This document shows, one piece after another, positions 3-6,108 of a stretch of DNA of 6,108 nucleotides (its first letter is position 1; every line of letters starts with the position of its first letter). The notes beneath the pieces are model-generated. The model was not told where the DNA came from, ran no database searches, and was given only the letters and a program-made list of their open reading frames with translations. The translations under genes were made by a program, and so were the position numbers. Source of the stretch: JALTID01 sp027004335 [NCBI: bacterium] (GTDB taxonomy: Bacteria; JALSQH01); NCBI GenBank assembly GCA_027004335.1, contig JALTID010000243.1:1-6108 (forward strand). The letters run 5' to 3'.

Positions 3-341
3 TACACAACTCAGGATAATAGCACATATACTACTTATATTCATTTTATTAACATAGTGACAGGTGAAAAATCTAGTTTTTCTTTAAAGGGCGACGAAAT
101 TTCTTTCTTCCTCGGGCTGGCAAGAATTGGTAACTGGTTATATTTTGTTGATGAGAATAGTGATAAATTTTATGCGTACAACTTTAAGACCCATGAAGAA
201 TTCAATCCTGCAGCCCCCCTGGGGGAATTGAAAAAATATCTTTTGGGCTGGGGTCCTTATTTAACAAGAGATGGTAAATATTATGATGTCTCTATACTAA
301 ATGGCAAGCGCATTGTAACTGTGATAGATTTTAGCAGGTAA
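3..341 (+). CDS. C-terminal part of a hypothetical protein, possibly beta-propeller (5' end outside window)
   Basis: The reading frame is open from base 3 to a TAA at 339-341 with no stop before it, so the gene almost certainly begins left of the window. A GTG at 57 lies inside this frame, has no convincing ribosome binding site, and is probably not the start. About 112 residues are visible. They alternate short hydrophobic beta-strand-like segments with polar turns (for example NWLYFVDENSDKFYAY, then YLTRDGKYYDV and KRIVTVIDF). This pattern resembles the last blades of a six-bladed beta-propeller or a WD40-like periplasmic protein. No catalytic motif, transmembrane segment or cysteine pattern is visible. 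The fold is inferred from texture alone and the function is unknown. It reads toward the tRNA gene on the plus strand and is not part of the minus-strand operon. Confidence 0.6.
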   Translation, partial: YTTQDNSTYTTYIHFINIVTGEKSSFSLKGDEISFFLGLARIGNWLYFVDENSDKFYAYNFKTHEEFNPAAPLGELKKYLLGWGPYLTRDGKYYDVSILNGKRIVTVIDFSR

Positions 342-433: not shown

Positions 434-667
434 ATGGAGCAAAAGGGAGATGTTTTTAAAGCCTCTAAACTGATAACCAGCAATACAATAGAGAGATATT
501 TTAGAGATTATCGTCAGTTTAGTTATGGCAAAGGAGTGTTATTCGATGAAGATTTCATTAATTACTTAACTAATCTTGTGTTTTATGACATAAATCAGAG
601 GTTGAAAAATAGACCTCCATTATTGCAGGTGAAAAATGTTGCAACAAATTTTGCGAACAAAAGTTGA
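434..667 (+). CDS. Hypothetical small protein, 77 residues
   Basis: This ATG-initiated frame of 77 codons ends in TGA. A purine-rich GAGAAGG at 417-423 lies 10 bases upstream, which is an acceptable but long spacing for a ribosome binding site. An in-frame stop at 416-418 rules out a longer version. The product is charged and aromatic-rich (IERYFRDYRQFSYGKG near residues 19-34), and its middle (about 39-57) looks helical. It has no signal peptide, membrane segment or recognisable motif. I do not recognise the family. It stands alone between the left-edge gene and the tRNA promoter. It could be a genuine small gene, a degraded fragment of a larger gene, or a chance ORF in AT-rich DNA. No other gene candidate was found between 342 and 727. 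Confidence 0.4.
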   Translation: MEQKGDVFKASKLITSNTIERYFRDYRQFSYGKGVLFDEDFINYLTNLVFYDINQRLKNRPPLLQVKNVATNFANKS

Positions 668-727: not shown

Positions 728-803
728 GGGGCTGTAGCTCAGTTGGGAGAGCGCCTGAATGGCATTCAGGAGGTCGGCGGTTCGAGCCCGCTCAGCTCCA
801 CCA
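728..803 (+). tRNA. tRNA-Ala, anticodon GGC
   Basis: The cloverleaf can be folded by eye. The acceptor stem is GGGGCTG (728-734) with CAGCTCC (793-799). The D stem is GCTC/GAGC (737-740 with 749-752). The anticodon stem is CCTGA/TCAGG (754-758 with 766-770) around the loop ATGGCAT, giving anticodon GGC at 761-763, which reads GCC and GCU alanine codons. The T stem is GGCGG/CCGCT around TTCGAGC. The third acceptor pair is G:U, the classic identity element for alanyl-tRNA synthetase, which independently supports the anticodon call. The discriminator is A, and the terminal CCA (801-803) is encoded. A run of six T residues (804-809) follows at once and may serve as a release site. The minus-strand hydrolase gene ends four bases away, so the two transcripts converge. 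Confidence 0.97.
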
Positions 804-807
804 TTTT

Positions 808-1656
808 TTATTTCTCAATTCTTTCTTCAATCCAGTTAAATAGATCCCCGATTGGTTTCTCTTTTTCCACCTCGTTGTAAATCTCGTGGTACATCCCCTC
901 ATAGATTTTTAAGGTTTTATCCTTTGAACCAGCCCTCTCATAAAATTCCTTTGCACCCTCAGGAGAAACAATCTGATCATCCCCGCCCTGCTGGAGAAAA
1001 AGAGGGAGCTGAAGTTTATGTGCTTCCTCAAAGGCTTCTTTCTGAGATCTCAGAAACTCTGTGAACCACCTTGCTGAAACTTTCCTTGTTACCAGAGGAT
1101 CATTCTCATATGCCTTTACAACTTCAGGATCATGGCTTATTAAAGAAGGATCGATTTCATTAGTCATGGATAAAGTAGGTAATATATTTGAAACGAATTT
1201 CCCAACTGCTTCTTTCCACTTTGGAACTTCTACTGCGATCTTAAGTCCAGGACCAGACGCAGCAAGAAGTTTAATCAGATCCTGATATTTCTCACCAAAC
1301 CTTAAAACTATAAGCCCCCCCATGCTGTGCCCCAGTAGGACTATCGGTAAATTTGACCGTTGAGCTGCATTTTCAACGAAAATTTTTGTATCCTCAACAT
1401 AATGATCAAAATTATAAACATGGCCTCTCTGACCATCTGATTTACCGTGTCCCCGAAGGTCATAAAGAAAAACATTATATCCTTTAGAGGTAAAAAAATT
1501 TATAATATTACCATACCTCCCGGAATGTTCTCCCAGACCATGGACCACCACCATGGTGGCTTTTGCGTCATCTACAACATGCCTCTGACAGTAAAGCTGC
1601 AAGCCCCCGATACCTGTAAAAGTATCTTCATGGGGAGATAATTTTTCACCCATCAT
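808..1656 (-). CDS. Alpha/beta hydrolase, monoacylglycerol lipase / lysophospholipase type
   Basis: This is a serine hydrolase of the Hydrolase_4 (monoglyceride lipase, PldB-like) group, 282 residues, the usual family length. The oxyanion-loop motif HGLGEHSGRY starts at residue 39, and DLRGHGKSDGQRGH, diagnostic of monoacylglycerol lipases, starts at 66. The nucleophile elbow GHSMGG places Ser at 111. The acid is probably Asp227 in QGGDDQIV and the base His257 in MYHEIYNE, so the triad is complete. Residues about 140-200 would form the lid. No signal peptide is present, so it should be cytoplasmic. Expected chemistry is ester hydrolysis of monoacylglycerols, lysolipids or similar esters; the true substrate is unknown. 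It is the last gene of the operon and its first ATG overlaps the stop of the MoaD-like gene (TAATG). Two ATG codons are adjacent (1656 and 1653). The second has better spacing (6 rather than 3 bases) from the AGGAGG, so the product may be one residue shorter. Confidence 0.93.
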   Translation of the reverse strand: MMGEKLSPHEDTFTGIGGLQLYCQRHVVDDAKATMVVVHGLGEHSGRYGNIINFFTSKGYNVFLYDLRGHGKSDGQRGHVYNFDHYVEDTKIFVENAAQRSNLPIVLLGHSMGGLIVLRFGEKYQDLIKLLAASGPGLKIAVEVPKWKEAVGKFVSNILPTLSMTNEIDPSLISHDPEVVKAYENDPLVTRKVSARWFTEFLRSQKEAFEEAHKLQLPLFLQQGGDDQIVSPEGAKEFYERAGSKDKTLKIYEGMYHEIYNEVEKEKPIGDLFNWIEERIEK

Positions 1657-1973
1657 TATCCTCCTGCTATACTTGAAATTATAGCAACTTCATCACCATT
1701 TTCTAATTTAGTAGAAAGGTCATCAGGAACATCCTTTCTCTGGCCTCTGTGGATCAAAGTTATCCTGGGATCCTTCATCATCTTCTTAAAAAAATTCCTG
1801 GGGAAACTACCCTTTTCATCAAGACAGATGAAAACCTCCCTGAGGGTTACACCCTCAGGGAGATCCAGTTCAAATTCTCTAGTCATATTCTTACCCTCTA
1901 TAAAAACTCCTACCGTGACCTTAACTTTTACCAGCCCTTCCTGACAGATTCTCTTTTTTAACAGGCCCAGCAT
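1656..1973 (-). CDS. MoaD/ThiS-like ubiquitin-fold sulfur carrier, AOR-associated
   Basis: This protein of 105 residues has the pattern of MoaD/ThiS beta-grasp carriers. An N-terminal strand (VKVTVGVFIEGK, about 17-28) is followed by FELDLPEGVTLREVF (34-48), a helix, a strand RITLIHRGQRK (70-80), the conserved LENGDEVAIISSIAGG region, and a free C-terminal Gly-Gly (104-105). That tail is the site that is adenylated and thiocarboxylated in family members. In MoaD the sulfur goes to the dithiolene of molybdopterin. Its place directly after AOR suggests that it serves the AOR tungsten/molybdenum pterin cofactor, which is inference. It is longer than typical MoaD (about 80 residues) because of an N-terminal extension of about 15 residues. 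I keep the ATG at 1973 because AGGAGGG lies 10 bases upstream, an in-frame TGA lies just before it, and no later ATG, GTG or TTG looks better. It starts 6 bases after the AOR stop. Confidence 0.88.
   Translation of the reverse strand: MLGLLKKRICQEGLVKVKVTVGVFIEGKNMTREFELDLPEGVTLREVFICLDEKGSFPRNFFKKMMKDPRITLIHRGQRKDVPDDLSTKLENGDEVAIISSIAGG
1660..1665 (-). promoter_or_regulatory. Ribosome binding site embedded in the Gly-Gly codons of the upstream gene
   Basis: AGGAGG on the minus strand is formed by the GGA GGA codons for the terminal Gly-Gly of the MoaD-like protein plus one preceding base. It lies 3 and 6 bases before the two candidate ATG codons of the hydrolase. With the TAATG overlap this predicts translational coupling of the two genes. 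Confidence 0.75.
1838..1860 (-). repeat. Perfect 10-bp inverted repeat (3-base loop) inside the MoaD-like gene
   Basis: CCCTGAGGGT at 1838-1847 and its exact reverse complement ACCCTCAGGG at 1851-1860 flank a 3-base loop. The mRNA of the operon would form a GC-rich 10-bp hairpin within codons for about residues 38-46 (LPEGVTLRE). A short T-run follows a few bases downstream on the minus strand. PEGVTL is a common MoaD-family segment, so protein constraint explains some but not all of the symmetry. Confidence 0.8.
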
Positions 1974-1979
1974 CAGTCA

Positions 1980-3986
1980 TCATCCCTCCTTGTAAAGGGC
2001 ATCAACAACATCATTAAGACCAAGTTCTTCAAGGATTTTCTTCTCAGGGATACCGGTTTCAGGGTTCCACCCCATCTCTTCCCAGAATTCACCCACCAGC
2101 CTGTTCATGTCAAGTTTAACTCCTGCAAGAGGACCATATTTAAGAGGTGGATCGCCCTTGGCTCTTGGAGGTATTCTGAAATCTCTTCCAGGGACTATGC
2201 CTTCTCTTGCGTTAAAAGCCTGTCTTAATGTTTTAACTCTTTTAGCAATTCCAAGGTACTCCTCTTCAGAAAGATCCCACCCTGTAACAGCATTGAGCCA
2301 TTTAACAAGAGGCAGTTCAAGACCCACCTGTATCCCAAAGAGACATCCTCCACAGATGCTGTTCAACTCCTGCCAGAGACTTGCATACATCTGACCTTTT
2401 CCTTTATTTTCTGTGGAGTATTTGAACTTAATACTGTAAAGTGGAGGCTCCTTGGGGACATCTTTATACTTTTTGTAAATAGCCATAAGCTCTTGATATG
2501 TGTAAGAAACAATTGTATGCCTTCCCGGAGTTGGTTCACTCTCATAACCAATTCCGTAGCCAGGATCGTACCTTGGATCATGCATGGGGAGCTCCTGACC
2601 CCCGGCATGCATACCAAACTCCCCCATCTCAGGCTTTCCAAGCTTCTCTATGGCCTTTTTTATTCCATCGGCCAGGATATCCCCGATGCCTTCCCTCCTG
2701 ATCATCTTCTCAAGCAACTTATAGGCTGCTTCCCCATTGCCCCAGACAAGTTCAAGACCATCAGTATCAGTCTTGGTAATATAGCCCCTTTCATAAGCCT
2801 CAAAGGCAAATGCTATTGTTTCACCCGCAGATATTGTATCTATCCCCGCTCTATTGGCAAGTTCATTAGCCCTGATAATCACATCAATGTCATCATTTAA
2901 AATTAGTCCACCAAACACACTTAAAGTTTCATACTCAGGTTTGTGTGATTCTTCAAAGCCATATTTTTCTTTACTCAGCTCATAAATACCTCCACATCCG
3001 AGAGGGCAGCTATAGCAGTTATATTTTTCTTTTTCAAAAGCTATCACAGCATCATCACTGATTTTCCGGGCCCTGGGAATGGGGAAATCCACCACTCCAG
3101 CACCGCTCCAGTTTTTAACAGGCAAATCACCATTAAGGGCACTGAGACCAACGATCCCCGATGTTCCATATCTCTTCAAAACAGCTTTCCACTGCCACCC
3201 CTCCTGTCTCACACCAAAGGGAAGCTTCCTGGAAAGCAATCTGGCGAGAAATCTGAGCACAGGTCCTTTTAAAAGAGCTTCCAGAGGCATTTTCCCTTCA
3301 AACTTTTTCATATACTCTCTGGTTACCTCGGTCATCTTTTTTCTGTCAGCTACATTGATTCTTGTCCTTCCAGAAAGAACCACCGCCTTTAAATTTTTGG
3401 AACCCATCACAGCACCAAGTCCGGATCTCGCAGCTATTCTTCCTCTATCGGTGACAATGCCTGAAATAAGACAACCGTTTTCAGCGGCCTGACCTATTGC
3501 AGCAACCTGGACTCTTTTTGCACCTGCCTCCTCCTTAAGCCTCTTTTCAGTTTCCACAGCATCCACGCCCCAGAGATGAGAAGCATCTCTTAACTCAATG
3601 TTGTCCCCGATAATAGCAAGATAAACAGGTTTTTCAGCTTTACCTTTAAAAAAGATGGCATCATACCCTGCTTGCTTTATTGCTGGAGCAAAATAACCCC
3701 CTGAATTTGCATCACCCCATCCGCCAGTCAAGGGAGATTTTCCCACCGCAGTATATCTTCCCACAAAAAGTGCACCTGTACCTGTGAGGACCCCAGCAGT
3801 TAATCCAAAAATCGCCTCGGGGGAAAGGGGATCAACTCCGGCAGATTGCCTCTCCCAGATGATTCTCGCACCAAGTCCGTACCCCCCCAGAAAATTTCTG
3901 TAAAAATTTTCCGGTAACTTTTCCTCCCACCACTTCCCTTCACTGAGATCTACCCATAAAATTTTTCCCATAAATCCACCAGCCAT
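1980..3986 (-). CDS. aor: Aldehyde:ferredoxin oxidoreductase (tungsten/molybdopterin AOR family)
   Basis: This cytoplasmic enzyme of 668 residues belongs to the AOR family, which oxidises aldehydes to carboxylates (or the reverse) with ferredoxin, using a bis-pterin tungsten site and one [4Fe-4S] cluster. The N-terminal family start GGFMGKILWVDL is intact, followed by GGYGLGARI (34-42), VGKSPLTGGWGDANSGGYF (81-99) and SGLGAVMGSKNLKAVV (188-203). The cluster motif CYSCPLGC supplies Cys324, Cys327 and Cys331. The fourth ligand is probably Cys548 in CGGCLFG, with Cys545 as alternative. KPEYETL (349-355), GIDTISAGETIAF (381-393) and ELPMHDPR (465-472) are further family blocks. It is longer than the usual 600-630, with extra sequence near 234-270. 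Neither pterin-binding DxxGL(D/C) motif matches consensus well. AGGAGG overlapping the upstream stop, 4 bases before the ATG, supports the start. A MoaD-like carrier follows and a TRAP binding protein precedes. The substrate is not evident. Confidence 0.96.
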   Translation of the reverse strand: MAGGFMGKILWVDLSEGKWWEEKLPENFYRNFLGGYGLGARIIWERQSAGVDPLSPEAIFGLTAGVLTGTGALFVGRYTAVGKSPLTGGWGDANSGGYFAPAIKQAGYDAIFFKGKAEKPVYLAIIGDNIELRDASHLWGVDAVETEKRLKEEAGAKRVQVAAIGQAAENGCLISGIVTDRGRIAARSGLGAVMGSKNLKAVVLSGRTRINVADRKKMTEVTREYMKKFEGKMPLEALLKGPVLRFLARLLSRKLPFGVRQEGWQWKAVLKRYGTSGIVGLSALNGDLPVKNWSGAGVVDFPIPRARKISDDAVIAFEKEKYNCYSCPLGCGGIYELSKEKYGFEESHKPEYETLSVFGGLILNDDIDVIIRANELANRAGIDTISAGETIAFAFEAYERGYITKTDTDGLELVWGNGEAAYKLLEKMIRREGIGDILADGIKKAIEKLGKPEMGEFGMHAGGQELPMHDPRYDPGYGIGYESEPTPGRHTIVSYTYQELMAIYKKYKDVPKEPPLYSIKFKYSTENKGKGQMYASLWQELNSICGGCLFGIQVGLELPLVKWLNAVTGWDLSEEEYLGIAKRVKTLRQAFNAREGIVPGRDFRIPPRAKGDPPLKYGPLAGVKLDMNRLVGEFWEEMGWNPETGIPEKKILEELGLNDVVDALYKEG

Positions 3987-3994
3987 AATTCCTC

Positions 3995-5005
3995 CTATTT
4001 TCCTTTTTGTATCAGATAAGCCTTCTTTCCTGCATAAAGCAGATTAAGAACCTTCTGAGTTATAATTCCCTCTCTAACCATCCTCTCGGGAAACCCTTTC
4101 AATCTATTTTTAAAAAGATTTCTTTGATCCGGTGTGAGCTTTATAATCTGTATCCCTGCTTCTTTAAAGCCCTCAATTATACCCTTTTCCGATACTGCAA
4201 GTTTTTTATGAATACTATCTGGAAGAGGTGCAAATCCCTTAAGAGAAAGCTGTCGGAATTTTTGAGGCAAAGAATTCCACCACTTTAAGTTACACATAAC
4301 GGCCACCGGCTGGAAAACATGCCTTGATAGAGTTATATACTTCAGATACTGGTACCACCCCAGGGCTGCTGTAAGAATAAGTGTGTTAGAACCACCTTCA
4401 ATAAGACCATTCTTGAAATAGTCAAGAACCCTGGGAATAGGGATAGGGACAGGGATAGCACCAAATGTTTTCCAGAACTCAATATGCATCTTGCTCTGCT
4501 GGGATCTAACTCTCATTCCTACAAGATCAGCAGGGGTTCTGATAGACTTTGTTCTGGAATGAAAATTTCTCCAGCCATGCTCAACAAATCCCATGAGGAA
4601 TAAACCTTTTATCCTTAATTCTTTTTCAAAATAAGGTTGTAAATATCTTCTCGTTACATAATCATACTCCTCGTAACTATCCCAGATAAAAGGGAGTTCG
4701 AATACCTGCATATCGGGGACAAGAGAAGCAACTGCCCCTGTGCTTAACCCTGAACATTCTATCGCTCCATAGAGGGTCTTCTCCGCCATCGTATTCTCAT
4801 CGCCAAGCTGACCACCCATGTAGATTTTCATCTTTACCTGCCCATTACTATTTTGCTCAACAAATTTTTTATACTCCTTAAGAGCCTCATGCCAAGGGGA
4901 ATCCTCAGGAGCGATATTGGCAAACTTCATAATATAAACTCTTGCCCAGAGAGTAGAAGCAATAAAAACAATTAGTATACTCAACCACCCGATTTTAAAT
5001 TTCAT
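3995..5005 (-). CDS. TRAP-type solute-binding protein, DctP/TatP family
   Basis: This periplasmic binding protein of 336 residues has the usual DctP length. Residues 1-21 form a signal peptide (KFK, hydrophobic core, probable cleavage after LWA). Family blocks follow in order: FANIAPEDSPWHEALKEYKKF (28-48), IYMGGQLGDE (61-70), FELPFIWDSYEE (102-113), GWRNFHS (144-150), LVGMRVRSQQSKMHIEFWKTFGA (161-183), YFKNGLIEGGSNTL (196-209) and KYITLSRHV (222-230). Arg167 in MRVRS aligns with the arginine that usually clamps the ligand carboxylate. The position that often reads ENP after GxxDG/GxxEG is SNT here, so ligand preference may differ from C4-dicarboxylate binders. A TatT-like gene precedes it, as for TatP of Treponema pallidum. 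The usual DctQ and DctM membrane genes are absent; the AOR gene begins 8 bases after its stop. GGGGG, 5 bases before the ATG and right after the tatT stop, is the ribosome binding site. Confidence 0.92.
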   Translation of the reverse strand: MKFKIGWLSILIVFIASTLWARVYIMKFANIAPEDSPWHEALKEYKKFVEQNSNGQVKMKIYMGGQLGDENTMAEKTLYGAIECSGLSTGAVASLVPDMQVFELPFIWDSYEEYDYVTRRYLQPYFEKELRIKGLFLMGFVEHGWRNFHSRTKSIRTPADLVGMRVRSQQSKMHIEFWKTFGAIPVPIPIPRVLDYFKNGLIEGGSNTLILTAALGWYQYLKYITLSRHVFQPVAVMCNLKWWNSLPQKFRQLSLKGFAPLPDSIHKKLAVSEKGIIEGFKEAGIQIIKLTPDQRNLFKNRLKGFPERMVREGIITQKVLNLLYAGKKAYLIQKGK

Positions 5006-5016
5006 TTCATCCCCCT

Positions 5017-5883
5017 TTAAAATAACTTATCTATCTTTTTAAGCAATTCTCTTGCCTTATCCTGAGCTGCTTTCTGTTCAGGGACTACATCAGGATAGAC
5101 AGTGACATCTCCTTTAAGGACCTCATTTAAAAGTTTTTTGAAAAGTTTCTTGTCCTCTTTTCTTACAGCGTAAAATTCTGCATAAAGAACTTTAGTCTCA
5201 AGATAATAGGGAGCAATTTTTAAAGATTTTTCAAAATGTTCTTTAGATTTTTCCAGGCTCCCACCCATCAAACTTGGAATAACTGCATAAAACGCCCCCC
5301 AATATCTATCAGGTGCACCATAGAAAAAAGTTATATCAAGCTCAGTTACTCTCTTCATCAATGCCTTAACTTTGGAAAGATTGAAAATAGATTTCATTAT
5401 TCCATAAAGTTTTGACCATTTCCCAAGATTCACAGCAGTCCAGTACATTGCTTCAATGTAGTCCTTGCCCAGTTTTGAAGCAGCCCTGTACCACTTTTTG
5501 CCTGCCTTTTTCACTTCTATGTTTGTTTGAAGAGCTTTGATACCCCAGTCCTTCCCCTGTTCATAATCCTTCAGCATTTTCTCTTTATTTCCTCTGTCAA
5601 AAACCTCAGCAAGGAAATAATAACCCCATGACAATCTAGTGGCAGGAAAATAGCCTTTCGCAGGATCTTTCTCATATGCCTTTTCGTAAAGCTTAAGAGA
5701 GCCCAGAAGATCTTCCTTGTTATACCTGTTTGCCCAGCTTTTGTTTGCATGATTAATCAAGTCCTCGTAAGAGCCCGGTACCACGGGAGACTTAACCACT
5801 TCTGTAACGGGTTCATTGGCGAAAAGACCAACAGAAAAGAAAAAAATAGAAAAGCTTATGATACCCAGTTTTTTCTTTAACAC
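5017..5883 (-). CDS. TatT-like TRAP-associated periplasmic TPR protein
   Basis: This is a TRAP-associated accessory protein of the TatT family, which in Treponema pallidum forms a TPR-repeat complex with the binding protein TatP. I start it at GTG 5883, giving 288 residues: AGGAGG lies 6 bases upstream, and this start gives a clean signal peptide (LKKK, core GIISFSIFFFSVGLF, cleavage near LFA-NE at 22/23). A longer TTG version from 5940 would overlap the upstream stop and put 19 odd residues before the signal. Family blocks are AMYWTAVNLGKW (145-156), GAPDRYWGAFYAVIPSLMGG (189-208), the TPR helix EKSKEHFEKSLKIAPYYLETK, and YAEFYAVRKEDKKLF (234-248). It contains no cysteine, so unlike lipidated TatT it should be a soluble periplasmic protein. 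It heads the operon, 11 bases before the binding protein. Confidence 0.9.
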   Translation of the reverse strand: MLKKKLGIISFSIFFFSVGLFANEPVTEVVKSPVVPGSYEDLINHANKSWANRYNKEDLLGSLKLYEKAYEKDPAKGYFPATRLSWGYYFLAEVFDRGNKEKMLKDYEQGKDWGIKALQTNIEVKKAGKKWYRAASKLGKDYIEAMYWTAVNLGKWSKLYGIMKSIFNLSKVKALMKRVTELDITFFYGAPDRYWGAFYAVIPSLMGGSLEKSKEHFEKSLKIAPYYLETKVLYAEFYAVRKEDKKLFKKLLNEVLKGDVTVYPDVVPEQKAAQDKARELLKKIDKLF

Positions 5884-5889
5884 GAGACT

Positions 5890-5895
5890 CCTCCT
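5890..5895 (-). promoter_or_regulatory. Ribosome binding site that fixes the tatT-like start at GTG 5883
   Basis: A perfect AGGAGG on the minus strand lies 6 bases before GTG 5883-5881. It falls inside any longer reading frame, so it argues for the GTG as the true start rather than the TTG at 5940. Confidence 0.8.
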
Positions 5896-5905
5896 TTTTT
5901 TATAA

Positions 5906-5934
5906 AGGATAGTAAACTTTGATTGATGTGTCAA
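5906..5934 (-). promoter_or_regulatory. Sigma70-type promoter of the tatT-tatP-aor operon
   Basis: On the minus strand a consensus TTGACA -35 box (5934-5929) is followed after exactly 17 bases by TATCCT (5911-5906), which matches 4 of 6 bases of the -10 consensus. The predicted start near 5899 leaves a leader of about 16 bases that just includes the AGGAGG. The box begins 2 bases after the stop codon of the upstream lipase gene. The operon could therefore be expressed separately from the lipase, although read-through is possible because no terminator is visible between them. Confidence 0.6.
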
Positions 5935-5936
5935 TA

Positions 5937-6108
5937 TCAAAAGTCTTCTTTTTCAAGTCTCCTTGCCTCGGAAAGAAAAAAACCAAGATAGTCAAAATTT
6001 GTCATACCAAGGGGCTGGCCTATGATGCCATAATGATCCCCCTCAAGAATTCCTAACCATTCTCCCCACTTTGCAGATTTTATAGATACCATGCCATCGT
6101 TTTCACCC
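5937..6108 (-). CDS. C-terminus of a lipase/esterase, alpha/beta hydrolase fold (5' part outside window)
   Basis: The minus-strand frame is open from the right window edge to a TGA at 5939-5937, giving 56 visible residues. NDGMVSIKSAKWGEW and then LEGDHYGIIGQ match the end of bacterial triacylglycerol lipases, where the aspartate of NDG(L/M)V and the histidine of the D/N-H-x block complete the catalytic triad with a serine that would lie upstream of the window. The gene is therefore probably an esterase or lipase acting on acyl esters. The nucleophile elbow and any signal peptide lie outside the window, so location and exact subfamily cannot be judged. It is on the same strand as the tatT operon, 53 bases before it. 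Confidence 0.75.
   Translation of the reverse strand, partial: GENDGMVSIKSAKWGEWLGILEGDHYGIIGQPLGMTNFDYLGFFLSEARRLEKEDF

What the first reader, a model, noticed from the sequence alone, without database searches (positions are those of the whole stretch)
808..5934. TatT-TatP-AOR-MoaD-hydrolase operon: a TRAP binding pair wired to a tungsten aldehyde oxidoreductase
Seen: five minus-strand genes with gaps of 11, 8, 6 and -1 bases, each with a Shine-Dalgarno site, behind one promoter. Known: TatT/TatP and DctP proteins bind solutes for TRAP transporters; AOR interconverts aldehydes and carboxylates; MoaD-type carriers supply sulfur for the pterin cofactor. Inferred: the ligand captured in the periplasm, or its product, is a substrate of the AOR, giving a combined uptake and redox route for a carboxylate or lipid-derived compound. 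I know of no described pathway with this exact gene set.
Basis: partly seen in the sequence, partly recalled or inferred. Interest (0 to 1): 0.7.

Follow-up and report, generated by a model that had tools for sequence, protein, structure and literature searches.

The report
Lipid-linked tungsten enzyme operon, transporter incomplete
A little-known bacterium keeps five genes together (a shuttle pair probably for greasy acids, a predicted tungsten enzyme that interconverts acids and aldehydes, its cofactor helper and a fat-splitting enzyme) but shows no sign of the membrane gate such shuttles normally feed, so the operon looks like an unusual way of handling fat-derived acids.

Summary
The five-gene operon is real: gaps 11, 8, 6 and -1, a ribosome site before each gene, and a promoter whose two hexamers are kept in the sister genus. 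The one related genome held (another genus) has the same order, but that pair is syntenic elsewhere too. In a sample of 386 genomes, 14 carry this AOR clade: a MoaD-like gene follows the AOR in 12, a monoglyceride-lipase-like hydrolase follows that in 5 (two phyla), and TatT+DctP precede the AOR only in the two sister genomes. None of 80 named AOR loci (a capped set) has TatT+DctP beside it. Two surprises: neither sister genome has a detectable DctM or DctQ, so a TRAP permease is probably absent; and the DctP keeps the carboxylate-binding arginine that Treponema TatP(T) lacks, so 'TatP' is the wrong name. Best reading: a permease-less TatT-DctP pair carries hydrophobic carboxylates released by ester hydrolases, and the AOR interconverts them with aldehydes. 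Ligand and direction are unproven. A new variant of known parts.

The parts
5937..6107 (-). C-terminal fragment of a probable lipase, cut by the contig end, 53 bp before tatT
   Evidence: 79% identical over 56 residues to a longer fragment in the same place in G001; a two-row profile aligns with C-termini of bacterial lipases, E 0.024 at best, with NDG and DH residues kept; no Pfam match
5906..5934 (-). promoter-like site TTGACA-17-TATCCT
   Evidence: hexamers kept in G001 (11 of 12 bases), spacer diverged (5 of 17 kept) (counted)
5017..5883 (-). TatT, TRAP T-component, N-terminal signal sequence by eye
   Evidence: Pfam TAtT 3.6e-37; model pLDDT 87.8; Z 34.2 to 8g52, 26.5 to Tp0956, 21.3 to BstC
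3995..5005 (-). DctP-type solute-binding protein with the carboxylate arginine (R167), N-terminal signal sequence by eye
   Evidence: Pfam DctP 1.1e-58; R167 aligned with the arginine of a DctP that lies beside DctQ and DctM and with Trp in the two P proteins of G015 next to its TatT
1980..3986 (-). aldehyde ferredoxin oxidoreductase (predicted W-bis-pterin, one 4Fe-4S cluster)
   Evidence: Pfam AFOR_N/AFOR_C; C324, C327, C331, C548, T275, E353, H490 kept, PfAOR Y427 is H469
1656..1973 (-). MoaD/ThiS-like sulfur carrier ending in Gly-Gly
   Evidence: Pfam ThiS 1.4e-4; GG end in 13 of 13 aligned relatives; ubiquitin-like fold
808..1656 (-). monoglyceride-lipase-like alpha/beta hydrolase with GHSMG motif
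   Evidence: Pfam Hydrolase_4 1.4e-83; best PDB matches are monoacylglycerol lipases, 6qe2 at 7.3e-49; GHSMG at 109-113
728..803 (+). tRNA-Ala(GGC), convergent with the operon; a boundary, not a part
   Evidence: also in place in G001

Best explanation
The operon handles carboxylic acids released from lipid esters. Step 1 (inferred): the upstream lipase-like protein and the monoglyceride-lipase-like hydrolase cut acyl esters. Step 2 (inferred from fold and residues): secreted TatT, whose solved relatives are helical rings with a hydrophobic pore, and a secreted DctP that keeps the carboxylate-clamping arginine bind and pass on a hydrophobic carboxylate in the periplasm. No DctQ/DctM partner is detectable in the two genomes of this family, so the pair probably hands the acid to the membrane, which a protonated fatty acid can cross unaided (established knowledge, recalled). 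Step 3 (family chemistry, not shown here): the cytoplasmic AOR, whose pterin cofactor is made with the help of the neighbouring MoaD-like carrier, interconverts the acid and its aldehyde with ferredoxin as electron partner. Whether it reduces the acid or oxidises an aldehyde is open.
For: Operon with a conserved promoter. Same gene set in a second genus. AOR-MoaD in 12 of 14 and AOR-MoaD-hydrolase in 5 of 14 clade-AOR genomes, in two phyla. TatT fold matches the T-components of TPAT and the sterol binder BstC. DctP keeps the arginine that favours carboxylates. No DctM or DctQ in either genome, one DctP each. AOR keeps its cluster cysteines and three of four second-shell residues. MoaA is encoded in both genomes. 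Acyl-CoA ligase, acyl-CoA dehydrogenase, thiolase or 2-oxoacid dehydrogenase genes lie near other relatives of this AOR.
Against: TatT+DctP are beside the AOR only in two sister genomes and in 0 of 80 named loci. Those two genomes are syntenic elsewhere as well, so their shared order is weak evidence. The lipase assignment of the upstream fragment is weak (E 0.024). Both genomes are fragmented, so a DctQM could have been missed. An arginine-bearing DctP can also bind small polar acids. No ligand or activity data.
Confidence: 0.42

Rival explanations
1. Two unrelated modules side by side: an older AOR-MoaD-hydrolase cassette, found in another phylum too, and a TatT-DctP cassette that came to lie upstream in the ancestor of this family. 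They share a promoter, but the DctP ligand is not the AOR substrate.
For: AOR-MoaD(-hydrolase) occurs without TatT/DctP in 10 of 12 MoaD-linked genomes; TatT+DctP+AOR in 2 of 14 only, both of one family; general synteny between the two sister genomes.
Against: Gaps of 11 and 8 bp and one conserved promoter tie the modules together; the order has outlasted change at 48-81% of four-fold sites.
Confidence: 0.3
2. An ordinary TPAT-like TRAP importer whose DctQM lies elsewhere in the genome and was lost from the draft assemblies or is too diverged to be detected.
For: DctP and TatT families are typical of TRAP/TPAT systems; G000 is only 80% complete; in G015 seven DctPs go with one detected DctM.
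Against: No DctM and no DctQ in either genome, the sister being 97% complete, while the same searches score in G015 and G041 and in 7 and 5 of 14 control genomes; no permease gene beside the pair in G001.
Confidence: 0.15
3. A Bst-like lipid-trafficking arrangement: TatT and DctP serve an MMPL/RND pump encoded elsewhere, moving a lipid to or from the outer membrane.
For: BstA (MMPL), BstB and BstC are proposed as a sterol transport system (PMC10942540, passages); TatT model matches BstC at Z 21.3; MMPL matches in both genomes.
Against: No MMPL gene beside the operon in G001; MMPL also scores in 12 of 14 control genomes, so its presence says little; the binding protein is DctP, not the phosphonate-binding family of BstB.
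Confidence: 0.13

Closest known systems
TPAT system TatT-TatP(T)-TatQM of Treponema pallidum (Tp0956-0958)
   Same: T-component next to a DctP-family protein; TatT model matches Tp0956 at Z 26.5
   Different: No QM permease detected; DctP keeps the arginine that is Ala in Tp0957; no lipobox cysteine seen in either signal sequence; linked to an AOR
Bst sterol trafficking system (BstA-BstB-BstC) of Methylococcus capsulatus
   Same: T-component plus a binding protein outside a TRAP permease; TatT model matches BstC at Z 21.3
   Different: DctP in place of a phosphonate-binding-family protein; no MMPL gene in the window or beside the operon in G001; no sterol genes in the operon
AOR of Aromatoleum aromaticum (AorABC with MoaD-like AorD and AorE)
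   Same: AOR with MoaD-like gene in the operon (PMC6365974, passages)
   Different: No AorA- or AorC-like gene in this operon
AOR of Pyrococcus furiosus (1aor)
   Same: Best PDB match (1.1e-103); four cluster cysteines and Thr243, Glu313, His448 kept
   Different: Tyr427 is His in this clade, 14 of 14, a change reported for AOR of Clostridium formicoaceticum (PMC12096430, passages)
Monoacylglycerol lipases (6qe2 and others)
   Same: Hydrolase_4 family, GHSMG motif, best PDB matches
   Different: Activity unknown; encoded behind AOR-MoaD in 5 of 14 genomes

Membership tests
TRAP/TPAT transporter | T-component (TatT) of the TAtT family and fold | tested here: met
   Pfam TAtT 3.6e-37, over the cut-off; Z 34.2 to 8g52 and 26.5 to Tp0956
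TRAP/TPAT transporter | TatP(T)-type binding protein lacking the conserved arginine | tested here: not met
   R167 kept; Tp0957 has Ala there (PMC4646407, passages)
TRAP/TPAT transporter | DctQ and DctM membrane subunits | tested here: not met
   No match to PF06808 or PF04290 in G000 (80% complete) or G001 (97% complete); both are drafts
TRAP/TPAT transporter | Transport of a ligand | not testable with these tools
   needs experiment
AOR/WOR family, AOR-like | Four cysteines of the 4Fe-4S cluster | tested here: met
   C324, C327, C331, C548; 14 of 14 clade members
AOR/WOR family, AOR-like | Second-shell Thr243, Glu313, Tyr427, His448 (PfAOR numbering) | tested here: inconclusive
   T275, E353 and H490 kept; Tyr427 is H469 in 14 of 14; the same Tyr-to-His change is reported in one characterised AOR
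AOR/WOR family, AOR-like | Tungsten and aldehyde/acid activity | not testable with these tools
   needs experiment
MoaD/ThiS sulfur carrier | Beta-grasp fold and C-terminal Gly-Gly | tested here: met
   GG in 13 of 13 aligned; ubiquitin-like and MoaD matches by fold
Monoacylglycerol lipase | Hydrolase_4 domain and GxSxG nucleophile motif | tested here: met
Monoacylglycerol lipase | Monoglyceride hydrolysis | not testable with these tools
   needs experiment
Bst system | MMPL pump and phosphonate-binding-family partner in the same cluster | tested here: not met
   Neither was named among the window proteins scanned or the G001 genes around the operon that were scanned or listed; MMPL occurs elsewhere in both genomes

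The most novel reading that the evidence does not exclude
A permease-less fatty-acid uptake route: lipases free fatty acids, a TatT-DctP relay carries them across the periplasm, they cross the inner membrane unaided, and a tungsten AOR traps them by ferredoxin-driven reduction to aldehydes, doing the job that acyl-CoA synthetase does in the classical route.
Probability: 0.1. Interest if true: 0.75.

Novelty: new variant of a known kind. Interest (0 to 1): 0.42.

Why it matters
The ligands of most T-components, and the substrates of the AORs of this clade, are unknown as far as I know. An operon that joins both to two ester-hydrolase-type genes gives each a testable candidate: lipid-derived carboxylates. 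The absence of detectable DctQM in both genomes of the family suggests that TatT-DctP pairs can work outside TRAP transport, which would widen the role of these proteins, as BstC already hints.

Tried and rejected
Considered and rejected: (1) TatP as the name of the second gene, because the arginine is kept. (2) Shared gene order in G000 and G001 as strong evidence, because another contig pair of the two (L136/L137) is syntenic as well and the tRNA-Ala is shared. (3) A TatT beside the AOR in G036: by Pfam the gene is a TPR protein, not TAtT; the similar gene in L085 had no Pfam match at 1e-5. (4) The DctP of L099, more than 5 kb from its AOR, not counted as linked. (5) phmmer of the MoaD-like protein against PDB gave nothing useful; the fold search did. 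(6) Pfam found nothing in the upstream fragment. (7) No paper on 8g52 was found by its code. (8) The organism could not be named: one other genome of its family was found and the other rows share only the domain. (9) Print on the combination: of 13 papers with two or more of the terms TRAP transporter, T component, TatT and aldehyde ferredoxin oxidoreductase, 12 were listed and none of these held the AOR term; of 6 papers one held the AOR term and it held no TRAP term; AOR with monoacylglycerol lipase gave 0 papers. This speaks for that library and those words only.

Limits: the 80 named loci are a capped, pattern-selected set with many short contigs, and one pattern favours the His469 motif (H in 68 of 80, and in 8 of 22 more distant AORs). 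The TatT test on them used a home-made profile of three sequences. The 386 genomes are a sample, and G015's phylum held one genome, G041's three.

Rows dropped: the tree used 63 of 94 AOR rows. The MoaD alignment used 11 of the 12 linked MoaDs plus two from named loci (L052, L056); G174's was left out because the reading frame picked by my script does not end in GG.

Full report
What is there. The window is the whole of a 6108-bp contig in a 1.5-Mb genome that is 80% complete. Five minus-strand genes form an operon: tatT 5883-5017, dctP 5005-3995, aor 3986-1980, a moaD-like gene 1973-1656 and an alpha/beta hydrolase 1656-808, with gaps 11, 8, 6 and -1 and a ribosome-binding site before each. 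A tRNA-Ala lies convergently behind it. It is 79% identical over 56 residues to a longer fragment in the same place in the sister genome, and a profile of the two aligns with the C-termini of bacterial lipases, including NDG and DH residues. The match is weak (E 0.024), and that these residues are catalytic is recalled.

Promoter. TTGACA-17-TATCCT stands in G001 as TTGACA-17-TATGCT with 5 of 17 spacer bases kept (counted by eye). That pattern argues for a real promoter in front of tatT; the lipase-like gene may or may not be read through into the operon.

Conservation. G001 is the only other genome of the family that the searches returned, and of another genus. It has the same five genes in the same order behind the same lipase-like gene. 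Identities over aligned codons are 78% TatT, 69% DctP, 87% AOR, 54% MoaD and 78% hydrolase, and 48% (11 of 23, MoaD) to 81% (17 of 21, lipase fragment) of four-fold sites differ. As a control, another contig pair of the two genomes (L136/L137) is syntenic too, and the tRNA-Ala is in place in both, so order in this pair alone is weak evidence. In a sample of 386 genomes, 14 carry an AOR at E <= 1e-140. A MoaD-like gene follows the AOR in 12 of 14, not found in G057 or G316. A Hydrolase_4 gene follows the MoaD in 5 of 14: G000, G001 and, in another phylum, G041, G059 and G060. TatT and DctP precede the AOR in 2 of 14, the two sister genomes. In the 80 named loci with relatives of this AOR, 0 have TatT and DctP beside it; one (L085) has a weak TatT-like gene nearby and one (L099) a DctP over 5 kb away. 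That set is capped and pattern-selected. In the AOR tree the window groups with G001 at 100, then with G015 and L080 at 87 (SH-aLRT); MoaD linkage is scattered, 13 changes on 63 rows.

No TRAP permease. PF06808 (DctM) and PF04290 (DctQ) have no match in G000 or in G001 (97% complete), whereas both score in G015 and G041 and in 7 and 5 of 14 control genomes. Each of the two sister genomes has one DctP, the one in this operon; each has further, weaker TAtT matches elsewhere. G015 has one complete set, TatT-DctP-DctP-DctQ-DctM, and five further DctPs elsewhere. A non-TRAP role has precedent: BstC, a T-component, is proposed to work with a binding protein and an MMPL pump in sterol trafficking (PMC10942540, passages). 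MMPL proteins are encoded in both genomes but not beside the operon in G001.

The binding pair. TatT has the T-component fold (model pLDDT 87.8; Z 34.2 to 8g52, 26.5 to Tp0956, 21.3 to BstC, with unrelated TPR proteins up to 19.6). The DctP keeps the arginine that clamps the carboxylate, present in 96.8% of 6142 DctP proteins and Ala in Treponema Tp0957 (PMC4646407, passages): R167 aligns with the arginine of G041's DctP, which lies beside DctQ and DctM, while both P proteins next to TatT in G015 have Trp there. That R167 is the Arg-147 position of SiaP rests on this alignment and on recall of the SiaP sequence. The ligand is therefore probably a carboxylate, and the hydrophobic pore of Tp0956 (review PMC5812351, passages) suggests a greasy one. 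Signal sequences were read by eye only.

The enzyme. The AOR keeps the four cluster cysteines and the Thr, Glu and His of the active site; PfAOR Tyr427 is His469 in 14 of 14 clade members, a swap reported for AOR of Clostridium formicoaceticum (PMC12096430, passages). No AorA- or AorC-like gene is in the operon, so ferredoxin is the likely partner (inference). MoaA is encoded in both genomes. MoaD-like genes in an AOR operon are known: aorD and aorE of Aromatoleum (PMC6365974, passages). AORs are described as the only known enzymes that reduce non-activated acids (PMC9295118, start of abstract in a listing), so both directions are possible. Neighbours of other relatives of this AOR include an acyl-CoA ligase (G089), an acyl-CoA dehydrogenase (G316), a thiolase (L037) and 2-oxoacid dehydrogenase genes (G174; those of G311 look alike by eye): acyl metabolism in general, not lipids alone.

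Verdict. TRAP uptake is weakened, and the joined TatT-DctP-AOR arrangement is known here only from one family. I file it as a new variant assembled from known parts, interest 0.42.

Noticed in passing
G015 loci L139, L144, L145, L146, L147: This genome has seven DctP matches but only one DctM match; several DctPs stand with no permease gene in the stretch read. L145 ends close to its DctP pair, so a permease could lie beyond.
   Followed up: partly
L136:1137-2054 and L137:1934-2773: A second, diverged TatT-like protein with no DctP beside it stands in the same place, next to a PPDK-like gene, in both sister genomes.
   Followed up: partly
L032:10528-12513: The AOR of G015, the closest one outside the family (58%), is interrupted by in-frame stops: a pseudogene or an assembly error.
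   Followed up: no
L169:6041-6466: The MoaD-like ORF behind the AOR of G174, as picked by my script, does not end in Gly-Gly.
   Followed up: no
window 434-667 (+) and 57-341 (+): Two small ORFs beyond the tRNA without a Pfam match.
   Followed up: no
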